A stretch of 44,232 bases of DNA, taken from Planctomycetota bacterium (GTDB lineage: Bacteria; Planctomycetota; UBA1135; UBA2386). The notes beneath the pieces are model-generated. The model searched no databases. It was not told where the DNA came from and saw only the letters and a list, made by a program, of their open reading frames with translations. The translations under genes were made by a program, and so were the position numbers. Location: contig JAEUHP010000078.1 of NCBI GenBank assembly GCA_016795295.1, positions 1 through 44,232 on the forward strand, written 5' to 3'. Within the stretch, counting starts at the first letter, position 1. Each line of letters begins with the position of its first letter. Below are positions 3,183 through 44,232 of this stretch, one piece after another.

Positions 3183-4766
3183 CGCGTTCGCGGCGATGGT
3201 CAGGCTCGGGTTGGTGCCGCCGCTGGAGGGCAGGAACGAGCCGTCGACCACGTAGAGATTGTCGAGTTCGTGGGCGCGGTTGTGGCGATCGAGCACCGAC
3301 TGCCGTGGATCGTCGCCGAACCGGCAGGTGCCGCAGGCGTGGCCGTAGTTGAGGTTGTTGACGCCGCCGAGGAACGTCAATTGGCCGCGACCGAGGCGGG
3401 CGCGCAGCAGCTGGCGGTAGCGCGCATTGCGGGCCATCAGTTCTTGGCGGTAGCGGTAGTGGAAGCGCATGCCGCTCGGCGTGGTCGCGTCCGGGACCAC
3501 GTGGTTGTCCGCGTAGGGCAGGTCTTCGACGATGGTGGCGAACACGCCGGCGTGCTGGAAGTAGAGGCCTGCGGCCGCCGAGGCCGGACGCAAGAAGGGC
3601 CGCACCAACGGCCGCCACCACTTCGGATCGCGGCTCTCCTTGGCGCGCAAGTAGCTGAAGATCTGCCAGCGGTCGACGGCGACTCCCATGGTCTGGAAGG
3701 TGCCGAGCTTGACCCCGTCGACCAGGTAGAAGTCGTTCAGCGCGATGCTCTTCTGCGGGCCCGCGGTGGCCGGCCGGCCGGTGGGCTTGATCGCCACCAT
3801 GTCGCTGGTGTGCAGCATCAGGTTGCGCCCGACCAGGCCACTGCCGTTGGCCAGCCCCTGCGGCCACTCGGCGCTGCGCGAACGCAGCAGCAGCACCGGC
3901 GACATCAGCGAACCCGCGGCCAGGATCACCAGCTTGCCGCGCACGGCGAATTCGGCACCGCCCTGACGCACGTGCACGCGCTGCACCTCGCGGCGCCCGG
4001 CCTCCAGTGCGAGCACTTCGCAGTCGGCCAGCAACTTCGCGCCGTGCTGCTGCAGCGCCGGCATGAGGCAGGCCCAGCCGGCGTCCTGTTTGCACTGCTT
4101 GGCGCAGAAGTGGCCGCCGCAGTTCTGGCAGTCGGGCACGAACCGGCAGCCGACATGGGCGCGGTACGGATGCAGCCCCTTGCCGGCCAGCAGCTCGAAC
4201 AGTTGCGCATCGCGTTCGCTGAGCGGGGGCGGCGCCGGCAGGTCGTCCGCGGCGACGTCCAAGGGATCGCGGGTGCCGCACACCGAAAACAACCGTTCGG
4301 CGGCGCGGTAGTACGGCAGCAGGTCGGCGTAAGCGATCGGCCACTGCTCCGGCAGCGTGCTCTCGGCCGCCTGCTGGTGCTGGGCACGCGGCGCGAAGTC
4401 GAGCGGCCGCAGCCGTTCCAGTTGCGCCGCGTAGAGCGTGCTCGAACCGCCGGTGCCGCAGCCGAGCGGGGCATGGAAGGTCAGTGCGCCGAAGCTGGTG
4501 TCGCCCGAGATCGGCACCGGCCAGCGCCCTCCCTGCAGCAGCGTCGCCGGGGAATCGCCGGTTCGGATGCTGGCAGGATGGGGGCTGCCGTCCTTGGGCA
4601 TGGCGGCCGGATCGTGCAGGAAGTGCCCCTTTTCGACGAACAGCACGCTGCGCCCGGCCTTGGCCAGCTGGCTGCCGACCACGGCCCCCCCGAGTCCGGC
4701 ACCGACGACGACCACGTCCCACAGTGGTTGGTCGGGGTTCTGGGCCAGGAACGGGCTGGGCGGCAT
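3147..4766 (-). CDS. GMC-family FAD-dependent oxidoreductase
   Basis: A 539-residue flavoprotein of the glucose-methanol-choline oxidoreductase family. The ADP-binding motif GAGLGG starts at residue 22, with the ribose-binding Glu in LFVEKG at about residue 45. The C-terminal GMC domain carries the catalytic His in HACGTCRFG and the partner Asn in GGTNPSLT. A Cys-rich stretch around residues 205-235 (CQNCGGHFCAKQCK and flanking Cys) occurs in a bacterial GMC subgroup and could bind metal; this is inference. The ATG at 4766 is chosen because the FAD motif begins shortly after it. A TTG at 4913 overlaps the upstream stop and would add 49 residues that look non-conserved. It follows two glycosyltransferases on the same strand and probably oxidises a sugar or lipid alcohol, but the substrate is unknown. 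Confidence 0.88.
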   Translation of the reverse strand: MPPSPFLAQNPDQPLWDVVVVGAGLGGAVVGSQLAKAGRSVLFVEKGHFLHDPAAMPKDGSPHPASIRTGDSPATLLQGGRWPVPISGDTSFGALTFHAPLGCGTGGSSTLYAAQLERLRPLDFAPRAQHQQAAESTLPEQWPIAYADLLPYYRAAERLFSVCGTRDPLDVAADDLPAPPPLSERDAQLFELLAGKGLHPYRAHVGCRFVPDCQNCGGHFCAKQCKQDAGWACLMPALQQHGAKLLADCEVLALEAGRREVQRVHVRQGGAEFAVRGKLVILAAGSLMSPVLLLRSRSAEWPQGLANGSGLVGRNLMLHTSDMVAIKPTGRPATAGPQKSIALNDFYLVDGVKLGTFQTMGVAVDRWQIFSYLRAKESRDPKWWRPLVRPFLRPASAAAGLYFQHAGVFATIVEDLPYADNHVVPDATTPSGMRFHYRYRQELMARNARYRQLLRARLGRGQLTFLGGVNNLNYGHACGTCRFGDDPRQSVLDRHNRAHELDNLYVVDGSFLPSSGGTNPSLTIAANALRVADAILARG

Positions 4767-37204: not shown

Positions 37205-37208
<4 letters not shown>

Positions 37209-38203
37209 ATCTCTGCACCGAGTTCCTGGGCTGGACGCTGCCGCATCCCTTCATCGCCGGCGCCTCGCCGCTCACCGACCATCTCGACCGCATCAAGCGC
37301 CTCGAAGACGCCGGGGTGGCCGCGGTGGTGCTGCGCTCGCTGTTCGAAGAGCAGATCGTCCACGAAGCAGAGGCCCACCACCACGCCGAGGTGCTGCACA
37401 GCGATGCCCACGGCGAAGCCGCGAGTTACCTGCCCGATCCCGAGGGCGTGGCGTTCGGCCCGGACGAATACCTGGAGCACGTGCGGGCGGTGAAGCAGGC
37501 AGTCGGTGTACCGGTGCTGGCTTCCCTGAATGGCACCAGCGAAGGGGGCTGGATCGACTACGCGAAGGCGATCGACCAAGCCGGCGCCGACGGGCTCGAA
37601 CTCAATCTCTACGCCGTCGCCACCGACGCCGGAGAGAGCGCGGAGGAGATCGAGAACCGCACCTTCGAGGTCGTGCAGGCGGTGAAACGCTCGGTGCGCA
37701 TGCCGGTGGTGGTCAAGCTGTCGCCGTTCTACACGTCGCTGGCGAATCTGGCGCTGCGGCTGCAGTCGGCCGGCGCCAACGGCTTCGTGCTGTTCAATCG
37801 GTTCTTCGAGCCCGACATCGACCTCGAAGCGCTCGAAGTGCGGCCGCATCTGGAGCTGTCCACTTCGCACGAACTGCTGCTGCGGCTGCGCTGGCTGGCG
37901 ATCCTCTCGGGGCAGTTGGACACGAGTCTGGCGGTCAGCGGCGGGGTGCACACGCCGCGCGACGCGATCAAGGCGGTGATGTGTGGTGCGCACGCGGTGC
38001 AGTTGGTGGCGGCGCTGCTGCGCGGGGGGCCGCAGGTGCTGACCGAGCTGCGCACGGGAGTCGCGGAATGGCTGGAGCAGAACGGTTACCGGTCGCTGCA
38101 GCAGATGCGGGGCAGCATGGATCAGAGTCGGAATCCGGATCCGAAGGCGTTCGAGCGGGGGAACTATGTGCGGTTGTTGCAGACTTGGCGGGGGCTGGAG
38201 TGA
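37205..38203 (+). CDS. Dihydroorotate dehydrogenase-like FMN protein coupled to nifJ
   Basis: A 332-residue TIM-barrel flavoprotein of the PyrD family. LEDAGVAAVVLRSLFEEQI, GVPVLASLNGTSEGGW, DGLELNLYA, PVVVKLSPFYTS and SGGVHTPRDAIKAVMCGAHAVQL mark the usual FMN and substrate strands. It is not the canonical pyrD by layout: it follows nifJ (GTG at 37,205 overlapping the TGA) rather than pyrimidine genes, and pyrE is 11 kb away. Genes of this kind often follow pyruvate:ferredoxin oxidoreductase, so it may use ferredoxin or another partner. Its reaction is inference. It ends 82 bp before the first attC of the cassette array. Confidence 0.9.
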
Positions 38204-38285
38204 GTGTGGGCGCTCGAGGTGGGTCCGATCGCGGGGCCGTGCGCAAGTGAACGAGGCTCAGCTGTACGGACATGCCAGGTCGATC

Positions 38286-38354
38286 AGACAACGGTTGAGA
38301 CGCTGAACCGCGAGCGTCGCAGCGGTGCTCGTCGGACCAAGCGTCGAGTTGTGC
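38286..38354 (-). repeat. attC site 1 (end of array)
   Basis: A 69 bp site with plus-strand cores AGACAAC at the left and GTTGTGC at the right, both somewhat degenerate. The inner stem is GAGCGTCGCAGCGGTGCTC. It is the last site of the array, 82 bp after the nifJ-linked gene. Confidence 0.75.
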
Positions 38355-38364
38355 TGCCACGGTA

Positions 38365-38712
38365 TCAGGAACTGGGTCTCGGTGGCCGCGATGAAGCTGA
38401 CGGGAGAGCCTGCTGGAACCGATCCTGGCAGTAGGCGAGCCGCTCCTGCAGACCAAGCACCTCAGAGGCTCTCATGAGGTCTTTCCAGAAAGCGCCAGGC
38501 AAGGCCAGACCCTGAGCTCGCTCGAGCAACAAGTCGAAGCGCTCGAGGACAATCGGCAACCCATCGGTACCGCGAAGCTCGTGCCAGCGCCGGAGAAGAC
38601 TGCTGTCTTCGTCGAAGGGAGGCCCGTCGATTCCAACGCGCCGTGCTGCACGCCGGATGTTGGCATCAGCGATGGTGACTCTCTTGGCCGCCCGCAGAAG
38701 CTCCATGCTCAT
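38365..38712 (-). CDS. Cassette protein, unknown, helical
   Basis: A 115-residue protein, mostly alpha-helical by composition (Leu, Arg, Ala, Glu), with a Ser/Pro/Arg tail. The segment IADANIRRAARRVGIDGPPFDEDSS is the only distinct stretch. No family is recognised. It is the terminal gene of the cassette array, followed 10 bp later by attC 1 and preceded by the long attC 2. The ATG at 38,712 lies 5 bp from that site. Confidence 0.7.
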   Translation of the reverse strand: MSMELLRAAKRVTIADANIRRAARRVGIDGPPFDEDSSLLRRWHELRGTDGLPIVLERFDLLLERAQGLALPGAFWKDLMRASEVLGLQERLAYCQDRFQQALPSASSRPPRPSS

Positions 38713-38717
38713 GGTCA

Positions 38718-38867
38718 GCCCAAAGTCTCTGGCATCGAGCCGCGAGCGACGTTGCGGCGCTCGCCGGCCTGCATGGCCTTGTCATGCGGCATGATCGTCA
38801 CCGCGAACACTCCGTGACTTGAACTGCCTCAGCAGGCGACTTCGTCGGCTCCTGTGCCGTGTTGCCC
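38718..38867 (-). repeat. attC site 2, long form (about 150 bp)
   Basis: The left half (GCCCAAA core, GAGCGACGTTGCGGCGCTC stem) matches the other attC sites. The right half of the normal site (CGTCGGCTCCTGTGCCGTGTTGCCC) appears only about 65 bp later. The site thus has an insertion or derives from two fused sites. Confidence 0.65.
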
Positions 38868-38871
38868 AGCA

Positions 38872-39348
38872 TCATTCCCCACGCCGGCTGGAGTGCCAAG
38901 AGGCGCGCATCGACGCCGAGGTCGAATGATCCACCCATGCTTCATCGCCAAGAGCCGGCAAGTCCGGGACGCCGTAGGGACGCGGAAAGAACCGACCGAT
39001 GAGCACATCGTCGCAGTGCCCCACGATGACGGCGTCTCCCTTGATCCCCTTGGTTGATCCGCGATCTGAAATCAACACCAGAAGGTACTTGGTGTCGGCT
39101 GGCCAGTCCCTCGGGTTGTCCCTGCGAACTGCCACCATCCCGCCGGCGACCGCCACGACGGTCCCGTAGGAGCCAACCCACCAGATGCCGTCCATCGCGT
39201 ACAGATCCGGAGGAGTGGGACACTCGGCGCTGGCCAGGCGCTCCATCTCCTCGAGGATGGACGTCGAAATGCCCGTCGTCAGTTGCGGAGTGCGAGTAGG
39301 CACCGCACACGCCGCAGTCACGATGAGAACAAGAGTGAGAGCGCGCAT
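38872..39348 (-). CDS. Cassette protein, putative lipoprotein/exported
   Basis: A 158-residue protein starting with MRALTLVLIVTAACAVPT, an export signal with a Cys that could be a lipoprotein anchor (the lipobox TAAC is imperfect). The mature part contains DGIWWVGSYGTVVAVAGGMVAVRRDNP and GDAVIVGHCDDVLIGRF, a beta-rich pattern of unknown function. The ATG at 39,348 is 5 bp from attC 3, as expected for a cassette; longer upstream frames run through the attC and are not used. The TGA is 4 bp before the right core of attC 2. Confidence 0.75.
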   Translation of the reverse strand: MRALTLVLIVTAACAVPTRTPQLTTGISTSILEEMERLASAECPTPPDLYAMDGIWWVGSYGTVVAVAGGMVAVRRDNPRDWPADTKYLLVLISDRGSTKGIKGDAVIVGHCDDVLIGRFFPRPYGVPDLPALGDEAWVDHSTSASMRASWHSSRRGE

Positions 39349-39352
39349 GTCT

Positions 39353-39421
39353 GGCCAACGTCTTTGCCCCTGGGCCGCGAGCGCCACTGCGGCGCTTGCC
39401 GGCTCAAGGGCTGCCCAGTCA
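39353..39421 (-). repeat. attC site 3
   Basis: A 69 bp site with a good left core GGCCAAC and stem GAGCGCCACTGCGGCGCTT. The right core (CCAGTCA) is badly degraded, so excision of the upstream cassette may be reduced. Confidence 0.7.
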
Positions 39422-39423
39422 CT

Positions 39424-39999
39424 CTACTGCACGATCTTGCACTGGGCGACATCCAGGCCATCGGGAAGGTCGCCGGCGGCGATCCCATCGTGACCACCCA
39501 GAGCGAAGCCGGGGATCCTCAGAAGACGAGCGATCTCCGCAAAGCGATCGGACTCGAAAATGAAGCGGTCATCAGCGTCATCAGCCAAAGCGTCGTGCCG
39601 AAGGACCTCCTCCAAGGCCTCGGCTGCATCCGGAACCTGAAACATCCTGCAGAGCAGCTCAGAATCTCCACCCTGCGGAGGCTCAGGATCTGAATCGGAG
39701 AAGTAATTTGGGCACGAGGAATACTCATCGACTTGCCTACCCGACTGAAAGACCTGGAGCAACAACACGCTGTCGTCGTGGTTGGTGATGGCCAATCCAT
39801 CGCACTCGAGTGCGCGCGTAAGCAGTCCGGCACACTCCGAGATTGACCCATCCTGCGCTTCTGAGGCGGCGTCGAACACGACCGTGCACCCTCCCACTGT
39901 TGGAGAGACAATCGAACGTCGGCGATCGGCAGACAACGCCCTGACTGCATCTGCCTGCGCGACTCCGACAAGAACAAGACTCGTACAAGAACGTCCCAT
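39424..39999 (-). CDS. Cassette protein of a conserved uncharacterised family
   Basis: A 191-residue soluble protein. The run SIVSPTVGGCTVVFDAASEAQD, the segment LAITNHDDSVLLLQVFQSG and VDEYSSCPNYF, then GGDSELLC, form an ordered pattern that I have met in small proteins of varied bacteria (motif of the type hDSDxLxYxLFxxGxxVDEYxScPxYF). I know no function for it. The ATG at 39,999 lies 14 bp from attC 4. The stop (TAG) is 2 bp before attC 3. Confidence 0.8.
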   Translation of the reverse strand: MGRSCTSLVLVGVAQADAVRALSADRRRSIVSPTVGGCTVVFDAASEAQDGSISECAGLLTRALECDGLAITNHDDSVLLLQVFQSGRQVDEYSSCPNYFSDSDPEPPQGGDSELLCRMFQVPDAAEALEEVLRHDALADDADDRFIFESDRFAEIARLLRIPGFALGGHDGIAAGDLPDGLDVAQCKIVQ

Positions 40000-40012
40000 G
40001 TGCTCCTGATCT

Positions 40013-40081
40013 GCCCAACGTCTTTGCCCTTGAGCCGCGAGCGCCGTTGCGGCGCTCGACGGATCCTGCGGCTATTTGGGT
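40013..40081 (-). repeat. attC site 4
   Basis: A 69 bp site with left core GCCCAAC and right core TTTGGGT, inner stem GAGCGCCGTTGCGGCGCTC. The stop codon of the upstream cassette gene abuts the right core. Confidence 0.85.
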
Positions 40082-40575
40082 GTCCTTGGGTAGTAGATCT
40101 GTATCGAAGGCATGAACAGCTCACCGACAACTCCCAGCAGGTCCGTCGATGCACCGCCATGCGTTGAGGTCACCAAAACGCCCAACGGGTTTCCCTGCAG
40201 AAAGCGACTGTGAGACTCGACCACACCCCGCAGGTCGCTTGCGCCACTCAGCACGTGCGGCTCACGGCCATGGGGAGGCGCCCCAGGAAGGTCACGCAGG
40301 CAGCTGTTGTAGACCGTGAGCACACCCTGAGCATCGATGTGGATGCTGAACCCCACGAAGGGATTCTCCCACTCGTACAGCATGCCGGATGGCGCCATCT
40401 CGAGGATCTCGGAGCGCCGCCGCTGCGCCTCCTCGAACGTGAACGTCTCCGAGTTCGGTCGAGGCAGCTCTACGACATGCTGCCGTTTGGACTCCCACGG
40501 ATTCCGCTCCCGGCGACTTGCGCAACTCAATGCCGCGAGACCCATGGTCAGCAGAGTGAGCATGCAAACCTTCAT
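40072..40575 (-). CDS. Cassette lipoprotein, unknown
   Basis: A 167-residue protein with a lipoprotein signal: MKVCMLTLLTMGLAALSCAS, lipobox ALSC with Cys18. The mature part has a charged helical stretch (FTFEEAQRRRSEILEMAPSG) followed by beta-like segments (FSIHIDAQGVLTVYNSCLRDLPGAPPHG). It probably sits at the membrane surface. No family is recognised. The stop codon lies in the attC 4 region, and the ATG at 40,575 is 6 bp from attC 5. Confidence 0.8.
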   Translation of the reverse strand: MKVCMLTLLTMGLAALSCASRRERNPWESKRQHVVELPRPNSETFTFEEAQRRRSEILEMAPSGMLYEWENPFVGFSIHIDAQGVLTVYNSCLRDLPGAPPHGREPHVLSGASDLRGVVESHSRFLQGNPLGVLVTSTHGGASTDLLGVVGELFMPSIQIYYPRTPK

Positions 40576-40580
40576 GGCAC

Positions 40581-40671
40581 ACCGTACGTCTCTGACGCTG
40601 AGCCGCGTGCGAGGGCTTCGGCGCTCGCGGTTGTGTTGGTCGCGGTCGTCGGCTCCTGCGTCACGTGGGAC
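40581..40671 (-). repeat. attC site 5, about 91 bp
   Basis: A longer degenerate site: left core ACCGTAC, right core GTGGGAC, stem around GCGAGGGCTTCGGCGCTCGC. It carries about 20 extra bases in one arm compared with its 69 bp relatives. Confidence 0.6.
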
Positions 40672-40678
40672 GGCCAGC

Positions 40679-40984
40679 TCACCACCCCATCACGGCAGGA
40701 AGTCGCCGACCTCCGGCATCGAACAGAGTCCAGAGGTTGACCAGGAAGCACGGGGCCAGCACGACTCGACCAGCTGCCGGAACGCGACGCCAGATCGCGA
40801 CGGCAAGCAGTGAGGCCAACGACGCGACCCCGACCGCCTGCATCACGATCGACCTGTAGTCGTTGGTTGCGAGCGTGATGATGTTGATCGCGAACGCGTA
40901 CAACGTCATGAGCAAGACGAGGACGTAGGCAACCGCAGCCCATGGGGATGTCCGCCTTGCCGCCTTGCCGGTTGATGCTGTCAC
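40679..40984 (-). CDS. Cassette membrane protein (three helices), unknown
   Basis: A 101-residue integral membrane protein with three hydrophobic segments (about residues 18-38, 46-66 and 72-90) joined by short loops. The GTG at 40,984 is the first start codon after attC 6 (10 bp away); longer frames cross the attC and are excluded. No motif points to a role. It is the first of three membrane-protein cassettes in a row. Confidence 0.7.
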   Translation of the reverse strand: MTASTGKAARRTSPWAAVAYVLVLLMTLYAFAINIITLATNDYRSIVMQAVGVASLASLLAVAIWRRVPAAGRVVLAPCFLVNLWTLFDAGGRRLPAVMGW

Positions 40985-40993
40985 GAGGGGTCC

Positions 40994-41062
40994 GTCCAAA
41001 GGATCAGCCGCTCGGCCGCGAGCGCCGTTGCGGCGCTCGCTGGCTGCAGCGGCCGGTTGGGC
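40994..41062 (-). repeat. attC site 6
   Basis: A 69 bp site with left core GTCCAAA, right core GTTGGGC and perfect inner stem GAGCGCCGTTGCGGCGCTC. Confidence 0.85.
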
Positions 41063-41092
41063 TGCGATCGTAGTCGCCAACTGCTTGCTTGC

Positions 41093-41326
41093 CTACCGCT
41101 TCTGCACGCGACCTCTGTGCCAGAGGCAAGCCAGCACTCGCGCAACGACCAGAACCGAGAGGATGACCGCAGAGCGGGACCATGGCGAGTCGGTGTAGGC
41201 CGCGTAGGGGGCGTAGAAGACCAAGGTTGGCTCGAGCCAAGAGAACTCGAAGCTCATCCATGCCAACGCCACCGATGCCGCCACGAAGACCGCCAACCAC
41301 ATCAACTCCTTCGTCAGTCGCTCCAT
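41093..41326 (-). CDS. Cassette membrane protein (two helices), unknown
   Basis: A 77-residue membrane protein with helices at about residues 8-28 and 52-69 (SAVILSVLVVARVLACLW), linked by an aromatic segment with several Tyr and Phe. The ATG at 41,326 lies about 18 bp from the remnant attC 7. Because that site is reduced, this gene is probably stuck to the one upstream as a compound cassette. Confidence 0.7.
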   Translation of the reverse strand: MERLTKELMWLAVFVAASVALAWMSFEFSWLEPTLVFYAPYAAYTDSPWSRSAVILSVLVVARVLACLWHRGRVQKR

Positions 41327-41343
41327 GGTGACCTGTTCCGCCC

Positions 41344-41378
41344 TCCCAGCGGGTCAGCCGCTCAGCCGCGAGTTGGGC
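41344..41378 (-). repeat. attC site 7, internally deleted remnant (35 bp)
   Basis: The left arm (CAGCCGCTCAGCCGCGAG) and right core GTTGGGC match attC 6, but about 34 bp in between, including one arm of the stem, are gone. The folded structure needed for recombination cannot form. Confidence 0.7.
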
Positions 41379-41396
41379 TGCCACGACCCCGGACGA

Positions 41397-41576
41397 TTAT
41401 CCATGAGTCTCCGGGGTGTCGCTGCGCTCGTCGGGTGCACGCTCCTCGACGAACCACCAGAAGAACAGCACGCCGGCCACAGCACCCGCGATGTGCGCAG
41501 GCTCAGGTCCCCAAGACCACAGGAGGATTCCCGTGGTGATGATGATGGCCACTCGCTGCTTGCCGACTGTCGTCAT
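41397..41576 (-). CDS. Cassette membrane protein (short), unknown
   Basis: A 59-residue membrane protein with two close hydrophobic stretches (VAIIITTGILLWSW and GAVAGVLFFWWFVE), perhaps two short helices. The ATG at 41,576 is chosen over a TTG inside attC 8. It ends 18 bp before the remnant attC 7. Confidence 0.6.
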   Translation of the reverse strand: MTTVGKQRVAIIITTGILLWSWGPEPAHIAGAVAGVLFFWWFVEERAPDERSDTPETHG

Positions 41577-41597
41577 TGGATGCTGATGATCTGGTCC

Positions 41598-41667
41598 GTC
41601 CAACGTCTTTGACCATCAACCGCCGGCACCGCTTGGCGCACCGATCGGCTGCATGGTCTCGTTGGCA
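41598..41667 (-). repeat. attC site 8
   Basis: A 70 bp site with left core GTCCAAC and right core GTTGGCA; the stem sequence differs from the GAGCGCC type, with outer arms CCAT/ATGG. Confidence 0.75.
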
Positions 41668-41669
41668 GG

Positions 41670-42146
41670 CTACCCATCAAACTGGACCCGTTGCATCCGC
41701 AAGAACTCATCCAGATGGCCAATCAAGTTGAACCAGCCGGTTTCGGGACACGCCTCGAAGATGATCTCAATGCGCTTGCCTGCCAGGAACTTGACGTACG
41801 TCAACCCGAGGCTGCGAAAGAGATCGTCGTAGCTTGTCGGCTCCGGAATCTCGTACGCGGCGAGCATCTCGGCGATGTCGCGTTTGGTCGGGGCAAGCAA
41901 GTCGACCGTGTTGCCCACGATGTACTGCGTCACCTCCCGAACGCGCTGGCAGTAGTGGCCGTCGAAGGGCCCCTCCTCTGGATAGACGAGGATGCGAGCG
42001 ACGCCGCCATCGCCTCGAGGGTAGTCACAGGAGAAGTAACTGAAGTCACCAGACGTGCTGGTCGAGAGGACGAAGTGGCCGACACCGGGGATTTCGAATC
42101 TCGAGGGAACGCTCCCGCCAGACCAGTCGCCGAATCCGTACTGCAT
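41670..42146 (-). CDS. Cassette protein, unknown
   Basis: A 158-residue soluble protein, acidic to neutral, with aromatic-rich strands near the start (GFGDWSGGSVPSRFEIPG, SGDFSYFSCDYPRGDGGVARILVYPEEGPFDGHYC) and a helical second half (VREVTQYIVGNTVDLLAPTKRDIAEMLAAYEIPEP). No family is recognised. The ATG at 42,146 is 22 bp from attC 9 and the TAG is 2 bp before attC 8. Confidence 0.75.
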   Translation of the reverse strand: MQYGFGDWSGGSVPSRFEIPGVGHFVLSTSTSGDFSYFSCDYPRGDGGVARILVYPEEGPFDGHYCQRVREVTQYIVGNTVDLLAPTKRDIAEMLAAYEIPEPTSYDDLFRSLGLTYVKFLAGKRIEIIFEACPETGWFNLIGHLDEFLRMQRVQFDG

Positions 42147-42167
42147 AACTCCTCAGGGCTCTTGTCC

Positions 42168-42236
42168 GGCCTACGTCTTCGACCTCGCGCCGCGTTCGCC
42201 GCTGCGGCGATCGCCGGCTCCAAGGGCTTGTTGGGC
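42168..42236 (-). repeat. attC site 9
   Basis: A 69 bp site with right core GTTGGGC and a degenerate left core GGCCTAC; inner stem CGCCGCTGCGGCG. Confidence 0.75.
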
Positions 42237-42260
42237 AGCGCATGCTACCAAGAGAACGAC

Positions 42261-42542
42261 TCAGCCGCCTTGGCCGTCCGTGTAGTGGAAGTGCTCTTGG
42301 GCCGCCGTGGAGAACGACGCCACGAACGCCGACTCGCCACCACGATCCTTGGCGCGGCCGGTCACCAGCCGCAACCGCATCGCCCAGTCGTAGCAACCCT
42401 CATCCACCGGGAACGCGGTCAGCACACCCGTCAGTCGACGCTCGCGGATCCAGCTCTCAGCAGCCTCACGGGTAGTGAATACCCCGCCAGGTGAACTCTG
42501 GGCATCACGCGAAAAGACCCAAACATGCTTCTCAGGGACCAT
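42261..42542 (-). CDS. Cassette protein of a small conserved family (DUF7710-like)
   Basis: A 93-residue protein. The pattern VWVFSRDAQSSPGGVFTTREAAESWI, then GVLTAFPVDEGCYDWA and a terminal EHFHY, matches a small family I remember from cassette arrays, which I believe is listed as DUF7710. The number is from memory. Function unknown. The ATG at 42,542 is 12 bp from attC 10. Confidence 0.8.
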   Translation of the reverse strand: MVPEKHVWVFSRDAQSSPGGVFTTREAAESWIRERRLTGVLTAFPVDEGCYDWAMRLRLVTGRAKDRGGESAFVASFSTAAQEHFHYTDGQGG

Positions 42543-42553
42543 GCGACTCGGCT

Positions 42554-42620
42554 GCCCAACGTCTTTGCCGCTGAGGCGCGGCCGGCTTGGCGGCCGGTCG
42601 CCTCCTGCGGCTTGTGGGGC
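42554..42620 (-). repeat. attC site 10
   Basis: A 67 bp site with left core GCCCAAC and right core GTGGGGC; its stem is built on CGGCCG rather than GAGCGCC, as in attC 11. Confidence 0.8.
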
Positions 42621-42625
42621 CGAGC

Positions 42626-43075
42626 TTACCCGAAGCGGGCCAGCAGGGCTCGATGAACGTCTCGCTCAAGATCCGGAGCTCCGCCCAGCACGAATGCCAC
42701 GAAGTGCTTCGGCACCCACTCATCGAAGGCCGTGCAGTCTGCGAAGAATTCCACAGCTTCGGGAAGCGGATCGTGATCGAACCAGCTTGTCATCACGAAG
42801 GGTCCCGATCGGCCATCAACCTCATCCATGACCGAGACCATGTCGATGGAGTCGTCCCAAGTACTGCTGGTAGGTCCGAAACACACAGCGTGCCGACAAC
42901 CGGCGCGCACGAACTGCTCCGACAAGCTCGCTTGCTCATCCGGCGAAACACCATCGTCGCCTACGACCAGAAGAAGGGCGAACTCTGACCCGCTGATCGG
43001 ACAAGCGAAGGAGTAGGGCGGCGTTGAGCGCCCAAGCCAAACCGTGCAGGAGCCTGTGTTCAGAATGGAGCGCAC
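42626..43075 (-). CDS. Cassette protein, DUF7684-like
   Basis: A 149-residue soluble protein. LLLVVGDDGVSPDEQASL, GCRHAVCFGPTSSTWDDSID and FVMTSWFDHDPLPEAVEFF match in order a family I recall as DUF7684 (pattern WDDSVD ... VMTTWHxxEPLxE), often found in cassettes. Function unknown. The start is the GTG at 43,075, 6 bp from attC 11; longer frames read through the attC. Confidence 0.75.
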   Translation of the reverse strand: MRSILNTGSCTVWLGRSTPPYSFACPISGSEFALLLVVGDDGVSPDEQASLSEQFVRAGCRHAVCFGPTSSTWDDSIDMVSVMDEVDGRSGPFVMTSWFDHDPLPEAVEFFADCTAFDEWVPKHFVAFVLGGAPDLERDVHRALLARFG

Positions 43076-43081
43076 GCTTCG

Positions 43082-43148
43082 GCCCAACGTCTTGCCGCTG
43101 AGGCGCCGGACGGCTTGGCGGCCGGTCGCATCCTGCGGCTTGTTAGCT
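43082..43148 (-). repeat. attC site 11
   Basis: A 67 bp site with left core GCCCAAC and right core GTTAGCT. The TAA of the upstream cassette gene lies inside the right core. Confidence 0.85.
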
Positions 43149-43481
43149 GGCCTCCAGCTTATCCAAGTCGACGACATCGCGCGCCCAGAAGGTTATCGCC
43201 CCATCGGTCCCCTCGAAGTCGGACACCCACACCCGAAGGCGGTCCAGTCGGCGCCCGCTGACGTCAAGGATTTGCATGCCGTACGTCGGGTGCGGGAAAC
43301 ACCCCTTTTCGATCTGGAACTGTTGTGGGGACCAGAATCGCAGCCGGCGAACCACGGCCTCGCGCTGAAGCACCAGATCAACAAAGGGCTCCGATCCATC
43401 GAGACCGGAGTGGTAGCGGAGCTCCGCGATCGAGTACTCCCACGGCCGATCGATGATGGGGTGATCCGGATCGCGATCCAT
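43143..43481 (-). CDS. Cassette protein, unknown
   Basis: A 112-residue soluble protein with a strong pattern of alternating charges: IIDRPWEYSIAELRYHSG, VDLVLQREAVVRRLRFWSPQQFQIEKG and FWARDVVDLDKLEAS. It looks like a compact beta-rich domain. No function known. The ATG at 43,481 is one base from attC 12, and the stop is embedded in attC 11, a typical cassette layout. Confidence 0.8.
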   Translation of the reverse strand: MDRDPDHPIIDRPWEYSIAELRYHSGLDGSEPFVDLVLQREAVVRRLRFWSPQQFQIEKGCFPHPTYGMQILDVSGRRLDRLRVWVSDFEGTDGAITFWARDVVDLDKLEAS

Positions 43482-43482
43482 G

Positions 43483-43551
43483 GTCTAGCGTCTTTGGCGC
43501 TCAGCCGCGAGCGCCGCTGCGGCGCTCGCCGGCTCCTGCGGCTTGTTAGGC
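43483..43551 (-). repeat. attC site 12
   Basis: A 69 bp site with left core GTCTAGC, right core GTTAGGC and a perfect inner stem GAGCGCCGCTGCGGCGCTC. The stop of the next gene lies in the right core. Confidence 0.9.
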
Positions 43552-44070
43552 CCACGACTCTACCGTCGCCACGCAAGCCGGCAACCGCTCAAGTAGGAAG
43601 CGGGACCACGCTCGGACGTGGTCCGGAGTGGCGTAGCGAAGCCAAACATCATCGCGCTCCGAGTAGGGCACGGCGTCTGGCACGAACTTCTTGCGATACC
43701 ACTGCGTCACGCTCTCCGAGACATGCAAAGCACAATGTGAATCCGGAGGGCGCGTCAGACCTGCGATGACAGAATTCTGCAGGGCACGCATCTCCTCGCG
43801 CGCCTCGACAGGCAGCAACCCGAACATCCTCCTGCGACGCGATGGGTGCGCACCGACAACTGGCTCACCGGACCTTTGAAGCTCAACGACGAACTTGGAT
43901 CCGGCGTACGCATCCCAGCCGTCTTGGGACACCTGAAACCAAACCACCGTGTAGGCGTCGCCGTGCGAACGGCACCAGCTGAGGAAACTCTTGGCACGCT
44001 TGAAGTCAGCGGCCTTGAACCAGGGGCCCAAGTCGGACTTTAGCAGCGCGTAAACCTCAGTCGACTTCAT
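43546..44070 (-). CDS. Cassette protein, DUF4304-like
   Basis: A 174-residue soluble protein: MKSTEVYALLKSDLGPWF, AKSFLSWCRSHGDAYTVVWFQ, SQDGWDAYAGSKFVVELQ, then ALHVSESVTQWYRKKF and DDVWLRYATPDHVRAWSRFLLERL. This order resembles DUF4304-type proteins, which are uncharacterised; the match is by eye. The ATG at 44,070 is 17 bp from attC 13, and the stop codon TAA lies inside attC 12. A longer frame to 44,169 would run through the attC and is rejected. Confidence 0.8.
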   Translation of the reverse strand: MKSTEVYALLKSDLGPWFKAADFKRAKSFLSWCRSHGDAYTVVWFQVSQDGWDAYAGSKFVVELQRSGEPVVGAHPSRRRRMFGLLPVEAREEMRALQNSVIAGLTRPPDSHCALHVSESVTQWYRKKFVPDAVPYSERDDVWLRYATPDHVRAWSRFLLERLPACVATVESWA

Positions 44071-44087
44071 GCGCGATGACCCGACGG

Positions 44088-44156
44088 GCCTAACGGATCG
44101 GCCGCTGAGCCGCGAGCGCCGCTGCGGCGCTCGTCGGCTCCTGCGGCGAGTTAGGC
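44088..44156 (-). repeat. attC site 13
   Basis: A 69 bp site with both cores intact (GCCTAAC and GTTAGGC) and the inner stem GAGCGCCGCTGCGGCGCTC. Confidence 0.9.
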
Positions 44157-44169
44157 GCCGACTCGACAC

Positions 44170-44232
44170 CTACCTCTCGCCTGGATGGTAGCTGATCGCA
44201 ACCCCGTCGACCTCCTGTCGCCCTGGCTTGCC
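44170..44232 (-). CDS. 3' end of a further cassette gene (cut off)
   Basis: On the minus strand the last 21 codons read as a plausible protein end (VDGVAISYHPGER then TAG), 13 bp before attC 13. The other frames look less natural. The fragment is too short to identify. Confidence 0.35.
   Translation of the reverse strand, partial: GKPGRQEVDGVAISYHPGER

What the first reader, a model, noticed from the sequence alone, without database searches (positions are those of the whole stretch)
38286..44232. Integron gene-cassette array at the end of a probable Planctomycetota contig
Thirteen attC-like sites with recognisable core sites and GC-rich stems alternate with twelve complete genes, all on one strand, several stops inside the site cores. 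This is the defining layout of an integron array. Integron arrays outside Gammaproteobacteria are less studied, and every cassette here is of unknown function.
Basis: seen in the sequence. Interest (0 to 1): 0.85.

Follow-up and report, generated by a model that had tools for sequence, protein, structure and literature searches.

The report
Planctomycete integron gene-cassette array
The end of this planctomycete contig carries twelve small genes of unknown function interspersed with predicted fold-back DNA sites of the kind integrons use to capture and shuffle genes, so it is likely a gene-collecting array of a known type, whose integrase gene was not found in this assembly.

Summary
Window 38285-44156 carries 12 attC sites, found by a covariance model built here (10 trained it, 2 were held out) and by a second model built from attC sites next to true integron integrases in relatives. 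Two further degenerate sites rest on position alone (8.5-8.6 bits). All 12 genes are on the minus strand, starting 0-20 nt from an upstream site. Strong sites are not scattered: 20 of 23 found in the assembly lie here and on contig C42. One cassette recurs in other arrays with different neighbours. No integron integrase was found in the assembly, but 17 of 34 genomes of the family have one, and in 8 loci it lies directly upstream of such sites. The contig ends inside the array on the side where the integrase is expected, so this is a true CALIN or a cut integron. Planctomycete integrons, reverse integrase orientation and CALINs are in print: a new member of a known kind. The most unusual lead lies outside the window: IS91-type elements abutting cassette segments in 5 of 5 testable copies.

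The parts
38285..38354 (-). attC S1 (strand given is that of the cassettes; the models match the other strand, as for all sites), the array's distal end, 81 nt after the gene ending at 38203; not used to train R1
   Evidence: R1 49.4 bits, R2 51.1 bits
38365..38712 (-). cassette gene c12, 115 aa, unknown
   Evidence: no Pfam or NCBIfam match
38717..38783 (-). attC S2
   Evidence: R1 59.7, R2 43.3 bits
38800..38868 (-). degenerate attC remnant S2b directly after c11
   Evidence: 8.6 bits unfiltered over 38833-38867, not significant alone; repeat similarity
38872..39348 (-). cassette gene c11, 158 aa, lipoprotein-like N-terminus (by eye)
39352..39420 (-). attC S3
   Evidence: R1 61.3, R2 48.4 bits
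39424..39999 (-). cassette gene c10, 191 aa, unknown
40012..40081 (-). attC S4
   Evidence: R1 80.6, R2 67.3 bits
40072..40575 (-). cassette gene c9, 167 aa, lipoprotein-like N-terminus (by eye); stop lies inside S4
40580..40671 (-). attC S5, divergent; not used to train R1
   Evidence: R1 39.9, R2 44.2 bits
40679..40984 (-). cassette gene c8, 101 aa, two hydrophobic segments, GTG start chosen
40993..41062 (-). attC S6
   Evidence: R1 77.2, R2 65.3 bits
41093..41326 (-). cassette gene c7, 77 aa, two hydrophobic segments
41343..41381 (-). truncated attC S7 between c6 and c7
   Evidence: 8.5 bits unfiltered over 41343-41378, not significant alone
41397..41576 (-). cassette gene c6, 59 aa, unknown, internal ATG chosen
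41597..41666 (-). attC S8
   Evidence: R1 58.4, R2 41.0 bits
41670..42146 (-). cassette gene c5, 158 aa, unknown
42167..42236 (-). attC S9
   Evidence: R1 75.8, R2 63.0 bits
42261..42542 (-). cassette gene c4, 93 aa, DUF7710
   Evidence: Pfam PF24819, 101.9 bits, cut-off 27
42553..42620 (-). attC S10
   Evidence: R1 67.7, R2 63.0 bits
42626..43075 (-). cassette gene c3, 149 aa, DUF7684, GTG start chosen
   Evidence: Pfam PF24733, 70.9 bits, cut-off 26
43081..43148 (-). attC S11
   Evidence: R1 53.3, R2 41.7 bits
43143..43481 (-). cassette gene c2, 112 aa; ATG abuts the upstream attC, stop inside S11
43482..43551 (-). attC S12
   Evidence: R1 84.8, R2 77.1 bits
43546..44070 (-). cassette gene c1, 174 aa, uncharacterised family found in other arrays; stop inside S12
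44087..44156 (-). attC S13, nearest to the contig end
   Evidence: R1 85.7, R2 86.0 bits
44157..44232 (-). probable 3' end of a further cassette, cut by the contig end
   Evidence: sequence; the window is contig C180 from base 1
37205..38203 (+). flanking chromosomal gene, dihydroorotate-dehydrogenase-like (name recalled); no attC found after it in relatives

Best explanation
Window 38285-44156 is an integron gene-cassette array, twelve attC sites interspersed with twelve complete genes all on the minus strand, and it is predicted to gain, lose and shuffle its cassettes through an integron integrase (IntI) that was not found in this assembly. Inferred steps: the + strand of each site (the cassettes' bottom strand) would fold into a hairpin, IntI would bind its R and L boxes and cut at the AAC core of the R' box, and circular cassettes would enter at the attI-proximal end. 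Polarity (gene, then attC) places that end beyond base 44232; in 8 relative loci intI lies on the cassettes' strand with its 3' end facing the array (shown there, inferred here). The left end, beside the gene at 37205-38203, would be the old, distal end. The function of the 12 products is unknown. The array is likely a sedentary chromosomal one, either a true CALIN or the distal part of an integron cut by the contig end.
For: Twelve sites by two models, two of them held out from R1; R2 was trained on 12 attC sites near IntI in relatives, though these had been picked with R1. Pairing and covariation beyond shuffles and slid controls in window sites and relatives' sites. Gene starts 0-20 nt from an upstream site, 12 of 12 on one strand (for c6, c7 and c11 one of the distances is to a degenerate site). 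Model matches track the integrase in the family: 17 of 17 intI-positive genomes have 3 or more matches, against 6 of 17 intI-negative ones, own genome included (Fisher p = 4e-5; without the own genome 5 of 16, p = 2e-5). The 20 matches of at least 38 bits in 8 intI loci all lie on the 3' side of intI with co-directional cassettes. Cassette c1 (75-76% aa) sits between attC sites in G028 and G030, and has a second copy on own C245, without similarity in neighbouring cassettes beyond attC itself. C42 of the same assembly holds 8 more sites, none used in training.
Against: No IntI over the TIGR02249 cut-off in the assembly; the best match (113 bits) is the recombinase next to an IS91-type transposase. 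Five of 12 sites lack an intact AAC in the R' box (38717, 40580, 40993, 42167, 43482), so some may be inactive. Site 42167 hardly folds better than shuffled sequence. Of 35 rows, 15 scored under 38 bits and were left out of the orientation count: 8 antisense copies of listed sites, 2 that fit, and 5 that do not (L045:3695, L040:3391, L051:2391, L038:6849 and 1942; 18-22 bits). In 12 of the 20 fetched IntI loci no match reached 38 bits: in 11 the stretch ends 2-866 nt after intI, but L047 has 9.8 kb beyond it. attI, promoter and recombination were not tested.
Confidence: 0.95

Rival explanations
1. A true CALIN: the cassettes were laid down beside the 37205-38203 gene by an integrase acting from elsewhere, or the integrase was lost, and no intI exists next to this array.
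For: No IntI in a 91%-complete assembly; attC sites lie on several contigs. With this family's model no attC was found after the homologous gene in 13 searched relatives, 9 of which have at least 6.4 kb downstream; the one match, 19.9 bits in L064, lies far upstream. 6 of 17 intI-negative family genomes have 3 or more attC matches. CALINs outnumber intI-bearing integrons in Bacteria (PMC9668308, passage seen).
Against: The contig ends inside the array on the side where intI is expected; drafts tend to break integrons at similar attC sites (PMC9024848, passage seen); 17 of 34 family genomes have intI.
Confidence: 0.5
2. Ordinary intergenic hairpins (REP- or terminator-like repeats) between unrelated small genes.
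For: The sites are GC-rich palindromes and several also match on the opposite strand, one at 38.2 bits.
Against: Strong sites cluster: 20 of 23 at E <= 1e-6 lie in two arrays; they sit at IntI loci in relatives and track intI presence; genes abut the sites with one polarity.
Confidence: 0.02
3. The cassettes are moved mainly by IS91-type elements carrying a tyrosine recombinase, not by IntI.
For: In own contigs C278 and C52 and in G031, G025 and G009 such an element ends directly at a cassette-like segment followed by attC, 5 of 5 copies with enough downstream sequence.
Against: No copy of the element was found on C180 or C42; its recombinase leaves the IntI model region 178-236 unaligned; intI presence goes with attC abundance.
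Confidence: 0.03

Closest known systems
Sedentary chromosomal integrons with Planctomycetes-type attC sites (PMC8352920, passages seen)
   Same: Tandem attC sites with conserved sequence and structure; that paper built a Planctomycetes attC model.
   Different: No integrase found in this assembly; an own model was used because the published one was not at hand.
CALIN, clusters of attC sites lacking integrases (PMC9024848, PMC9668308, PMC8618304, passages seen)
   Same: Two or more attC sites within 4 kb and no intI found.
   Different: The contig end leaves open whether intI follows; 12 sites is more than the average of almost 6 per CALIN given in PMC9024848.
Reverse integrons of Treponema and Blastopirellula marina (PMC3607928, PMC6557892, passages seen)
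   Same: In this family intI is transcribed toward the array, on the cassettes' strand (20 of 20 strong sites in 8 loci).
   Different: Seen in relatives only; not testable in the window.
Archaeal MAG integrons (PMC9668308, passages seen)
   Same: Cassette arrays spread over several contigs of one draft genome, mostly CALINs.
   Different: Host here is Planctomycetota.

Membership tests
Integron cassette array (attC array) | At least two attC sites less than 4 kb apart | tested here: met
   12 sites, start-to-start spacing 386-660 nt
Integron cassette array (attC array) | Sites share R and L boxes and a conserved fold with covariation | tested here: met
   R boxes listed, 5 of 12 R' boxes lack the AAC
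Integron cassette array (attC array) | One gene per cassette, co-directional, attC at the gene's 3' end | tested here: met
   12 of 12 genes co-directional; c6 is separated from c7 only by a truncated site
Integron cassette array (attC array) | Cassettes move as units | tested here: met
   For c1 only, by comparison: same cassette, different neighbours; the other 11 were not tested this way
Integron cassette array (attC array) | Sites are recombined by IntI | not testable with these tools
   Needs an assay
Complete integron | intI adjacent to the array | tested here: inconclusive
   None found in the assembly, but the contig ends inside the array
Complete integron | attI site and Pc promoter | not testable with these tools
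   Would lie beyond base 44232
CALIN | No integrase next to the array | tested here: inconclusive
   None found in a draft

The most novel reading that the evidence does not exclude
Cassettes in this planctomycete lineage ride on transposons as well as on integrons: an IS91-type element with its own tyrosine recombinase ends in an attC-shaped terminus (R''-like GTYCAAC, a long imperfect stem, a short spacer, a GTT core) that docks integron cassettes, so cassette arrays would be carried and seeded without IntI, and the attC site may share an origin with such transposon ends.
Probability: 0.17. Interest if true: 0.8.

Novelty: new member of a known kind. Interest (0 to 1): 0.4.

Why it matters
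It adds an integron-rich planctomycete family (intI in 17 of 34 genomes at E <= 1e-40) whose cassettes are largely new to family databases (10 of 12 window cassettes match no Pfam family over its cut-off), and it supplies a tested attC model for that family. The cassette-borne c1 family has a confidently predicted fold and two relatives named as Pseudomonadota or Niveibacterium, so cassette exchange across phyla can be tested. The IS91 lead, if it holds, would bear on how integrase-less arrays arise.
Full report
What is there. The window is contig C180 of a 5.5 Mb draft genome in 309 contigs, 91% complete. Its last 6 kb hold palindromic repeats of about 70 nt between small genes. I aligned ten of the repeats with a hand-set structure and built a covariance model, R1. 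In the window it returned 12 sites at 39.9-85.7 bits, all on the + strand; two (38285, 40580) had not been used for training. The best match off the array was 20.7 bits. Pair counts exceeded shuffles and slid controls.

Independent test. Of 34 same-family genomes, own included, 17 encode integron integrases at E <= 1e-40, 15 over the curated cut-off. I fetched 20 loci around them. R1 found matches of at least 38 bits near intI in 8 of the 20. Of the other 12, 11 end 2-866 nt after intI; L047, a partial intI with 9.8 kb beyond it, has none. Twelve of the simpler sites gave a second model, R2, with strong covariation. R2 finds the same 12 window sites at 41-86 bits. Caveat: R2's training sites had been chosen with R1. 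Over the family, R1 matches at E <= 1e-6 (lower bounds, about 148 candidates scored per genome; antisense matches counted too) number 3 or more in all 17 intI-positive genomes; among 17 intI-negative ones 9 have any and 6 have 3 or more (Fisher p = 0.0013 and 4e-5).

Not scattered hairpins. In the own assembly 25 matches reach E <= 1e-6: 12 here, 8 on the 5130-bp contig C42, single sites on C52, C278 and C280, and two antisense matches of the same palindromes. Weaker R1 matches (21-31 bits) lie on C245 and C279.

Anatomy. All 12 genes are on the minus strand. Start codons lie 0-20 nt from the upstream site and stops -10 to +30 nt from the next, three inside it. For c6, c7 and c11 one of these distances is to a degenerate site, and the starts of c3, c6, c8 and c11 were chosen by me. 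The polarity is gene-then-attC, so the array reads right to left and the attI end would lie beyond base 44232. In the hand-set consensus the + strand has one extra unpaired base on the 3' arm and a 6-versus-2 nt spacer, an asymmetry that attC sites have (comparison recalled). The AAC of the R' box is intact in 7 of 12 sites and altered in 5; IntI cuts in the AAC of the R box (PMC11641012, passage seen). A truncated and a degenerate further site score only 8.5 and 8.6 bits, no better than chance matches in the same list.

Integrase and host. No protein in the assembly reaches the TIGR02249 cut-off. In the 8 relative loci the 20 matches of at least 38 bits all lie on the 3' side of intI with cassettes on intI's strand. 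The 15 weaker rows were left out: 8 antisense, 2 that fit, 5 that do not. Reverse integrons are known, including Blastopirellula marina (PMC6557892, passage seen). Host: match coordinates in G009, G013, G012 and G011 coincide with JADZDL010000361, JAHBXX010000004, JAEUHR010000023 and JAEUHS010000019, all titled Planctomycetota bacterium. In an even draw of the phylum 52 of 294 genomes have IntI at E <= 1e-60, 49 over the cut-off.

Cargo. Pfam over its cut-off: DUF7684 (c3) and DUF7710 (c4) only. PADLOC gave none for the 10 cassettes given, NCBIfam none for the 6 given. c7 and c8 have two hydrophobic segments each; c9 and c11 look like lipoproteins by eye. c1 occurs in 3 of 34 family genomes, own included: between attC sites in G028 and G030, and in a second own copy on C245 with one weak upstream site; the copies are 75-76% identical to c1, and DNA similarity stops at the cassette ends apart from attC itself. 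It has 75 database relatives at E <= 1e-5, two with organism names (Niveibacterium, a Pseudomonadota MAG). Its predicted structure is confident without a solved counterpart found.

Placement. With this family's model no attC was found after the homologue of the 37205-38203 gene in 13 searched relatives, 9 with at least 6.4 kb downstream, so the array looks like a lineage-specific insertion there. Whether it is a CALIN or a cut integron cannot be decided from this draft.

A lead outside the window. IS91-type elements with a tyrosine recombinase lie on own C278, with partial copies on C52 and C207. Close copies exist in G031, G025 and G009. In the five copies with enough downstream sequence (C278, C52, G031, G025, G009) the conserved right end stops at or just after a GTT core (GTTGGGC in four, GTTTTGG in G009) and is followed by a different cassette-sized segment and an attC of 50-89 bits by R2. 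In four of the five a gene starts -3 to +18 nt from that core; in G031 the segment is 247 nt and no frame of 60 aa or more was found at its start. C207 has GATGGGC and its contig ends about 106 nt beyond. Two more distant family copies (G009:C29, G021:C5, about 50% identical) have no attC. The two left flanks available, C278 and G031, show no attC by R2 or by eye. Four distant planctomycete copies (G306, G248, G389, G385) have a terminal palindrome with an R''-like box and a GTT core, but R2 found an attC in only 1 of 27 phylum loci, at 25 bits, with about 1.5 kb of flank at most. Three proteobacterial copies have, by eye, a palindrome without the core. Docking of cassettes on the element, or targeted insertion at cassette cores, are both open.

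Verdict. A genuine attC cassette array in Planctomycetota, ordinary in kind and new in detail.

Noticed in passing
L056:1-5130 (own genome, whole contig C42): A second array fragment with 8 attC sites; the segment at 3253-3454 recurs at the contig's right end with 2 differences in 202 nt, a recent cassette duplication.
   Followed up: partly
L058:8728-11249 (C278), L057:1-372 (C52), L166:107-754 (C207): IS91-type element with tyrosine recombinase whose conserved right end has an attC-like layout; a cassette-like segment and an attC follow in 5 of 5 testable family copies.
   Followed up: partly
L216, L217, L220, L215 right ends; L208, L209, L211: Distant planctomycete IS91-type elements end with GTTCAAC, a long palindrome and a GTT core, then unrelated sequence. 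Three of four copies in G209 give shared ends, GTTGAAC at the left and CTTGGTT at the right; the alignment of the fourth (L210) runs on.
   Followed up: partly
L060:7158-7679 (own contig C245): A second, 75% identical copy of the c1 gene near two weak attC matches (R1 31.1 and 27.2 bits, R2 18.5 and 23.9) at a contig end.
   Followed up: partly
L037, L038, L042, L043, L044, L045, L048, L049: Integron integrases of this family are transcribed toward the array on the cassettes' strand, 20 of 20 matches of at least 38 bits.
   Followed up: yes
window:43546-44070: c1 protein family without Pfam assignment; confident predicted fold (pLDDT 95.7) with no PDB match at E <= 0.001; weak DUF4304 similarity in 12 of 51 members.
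   Followed up: partly
window:14495-14553: Lone attC-model match (29.8 bits with R2) inside a coding frame, probably chance.
   Followed up: yes
L057:387-1835: The first segment after the IS91-type end on C52 encodes a 482-aa protein with a C-terminal SEC-C-like motif (motif recalled), long for a cassette.
   Followed up: no
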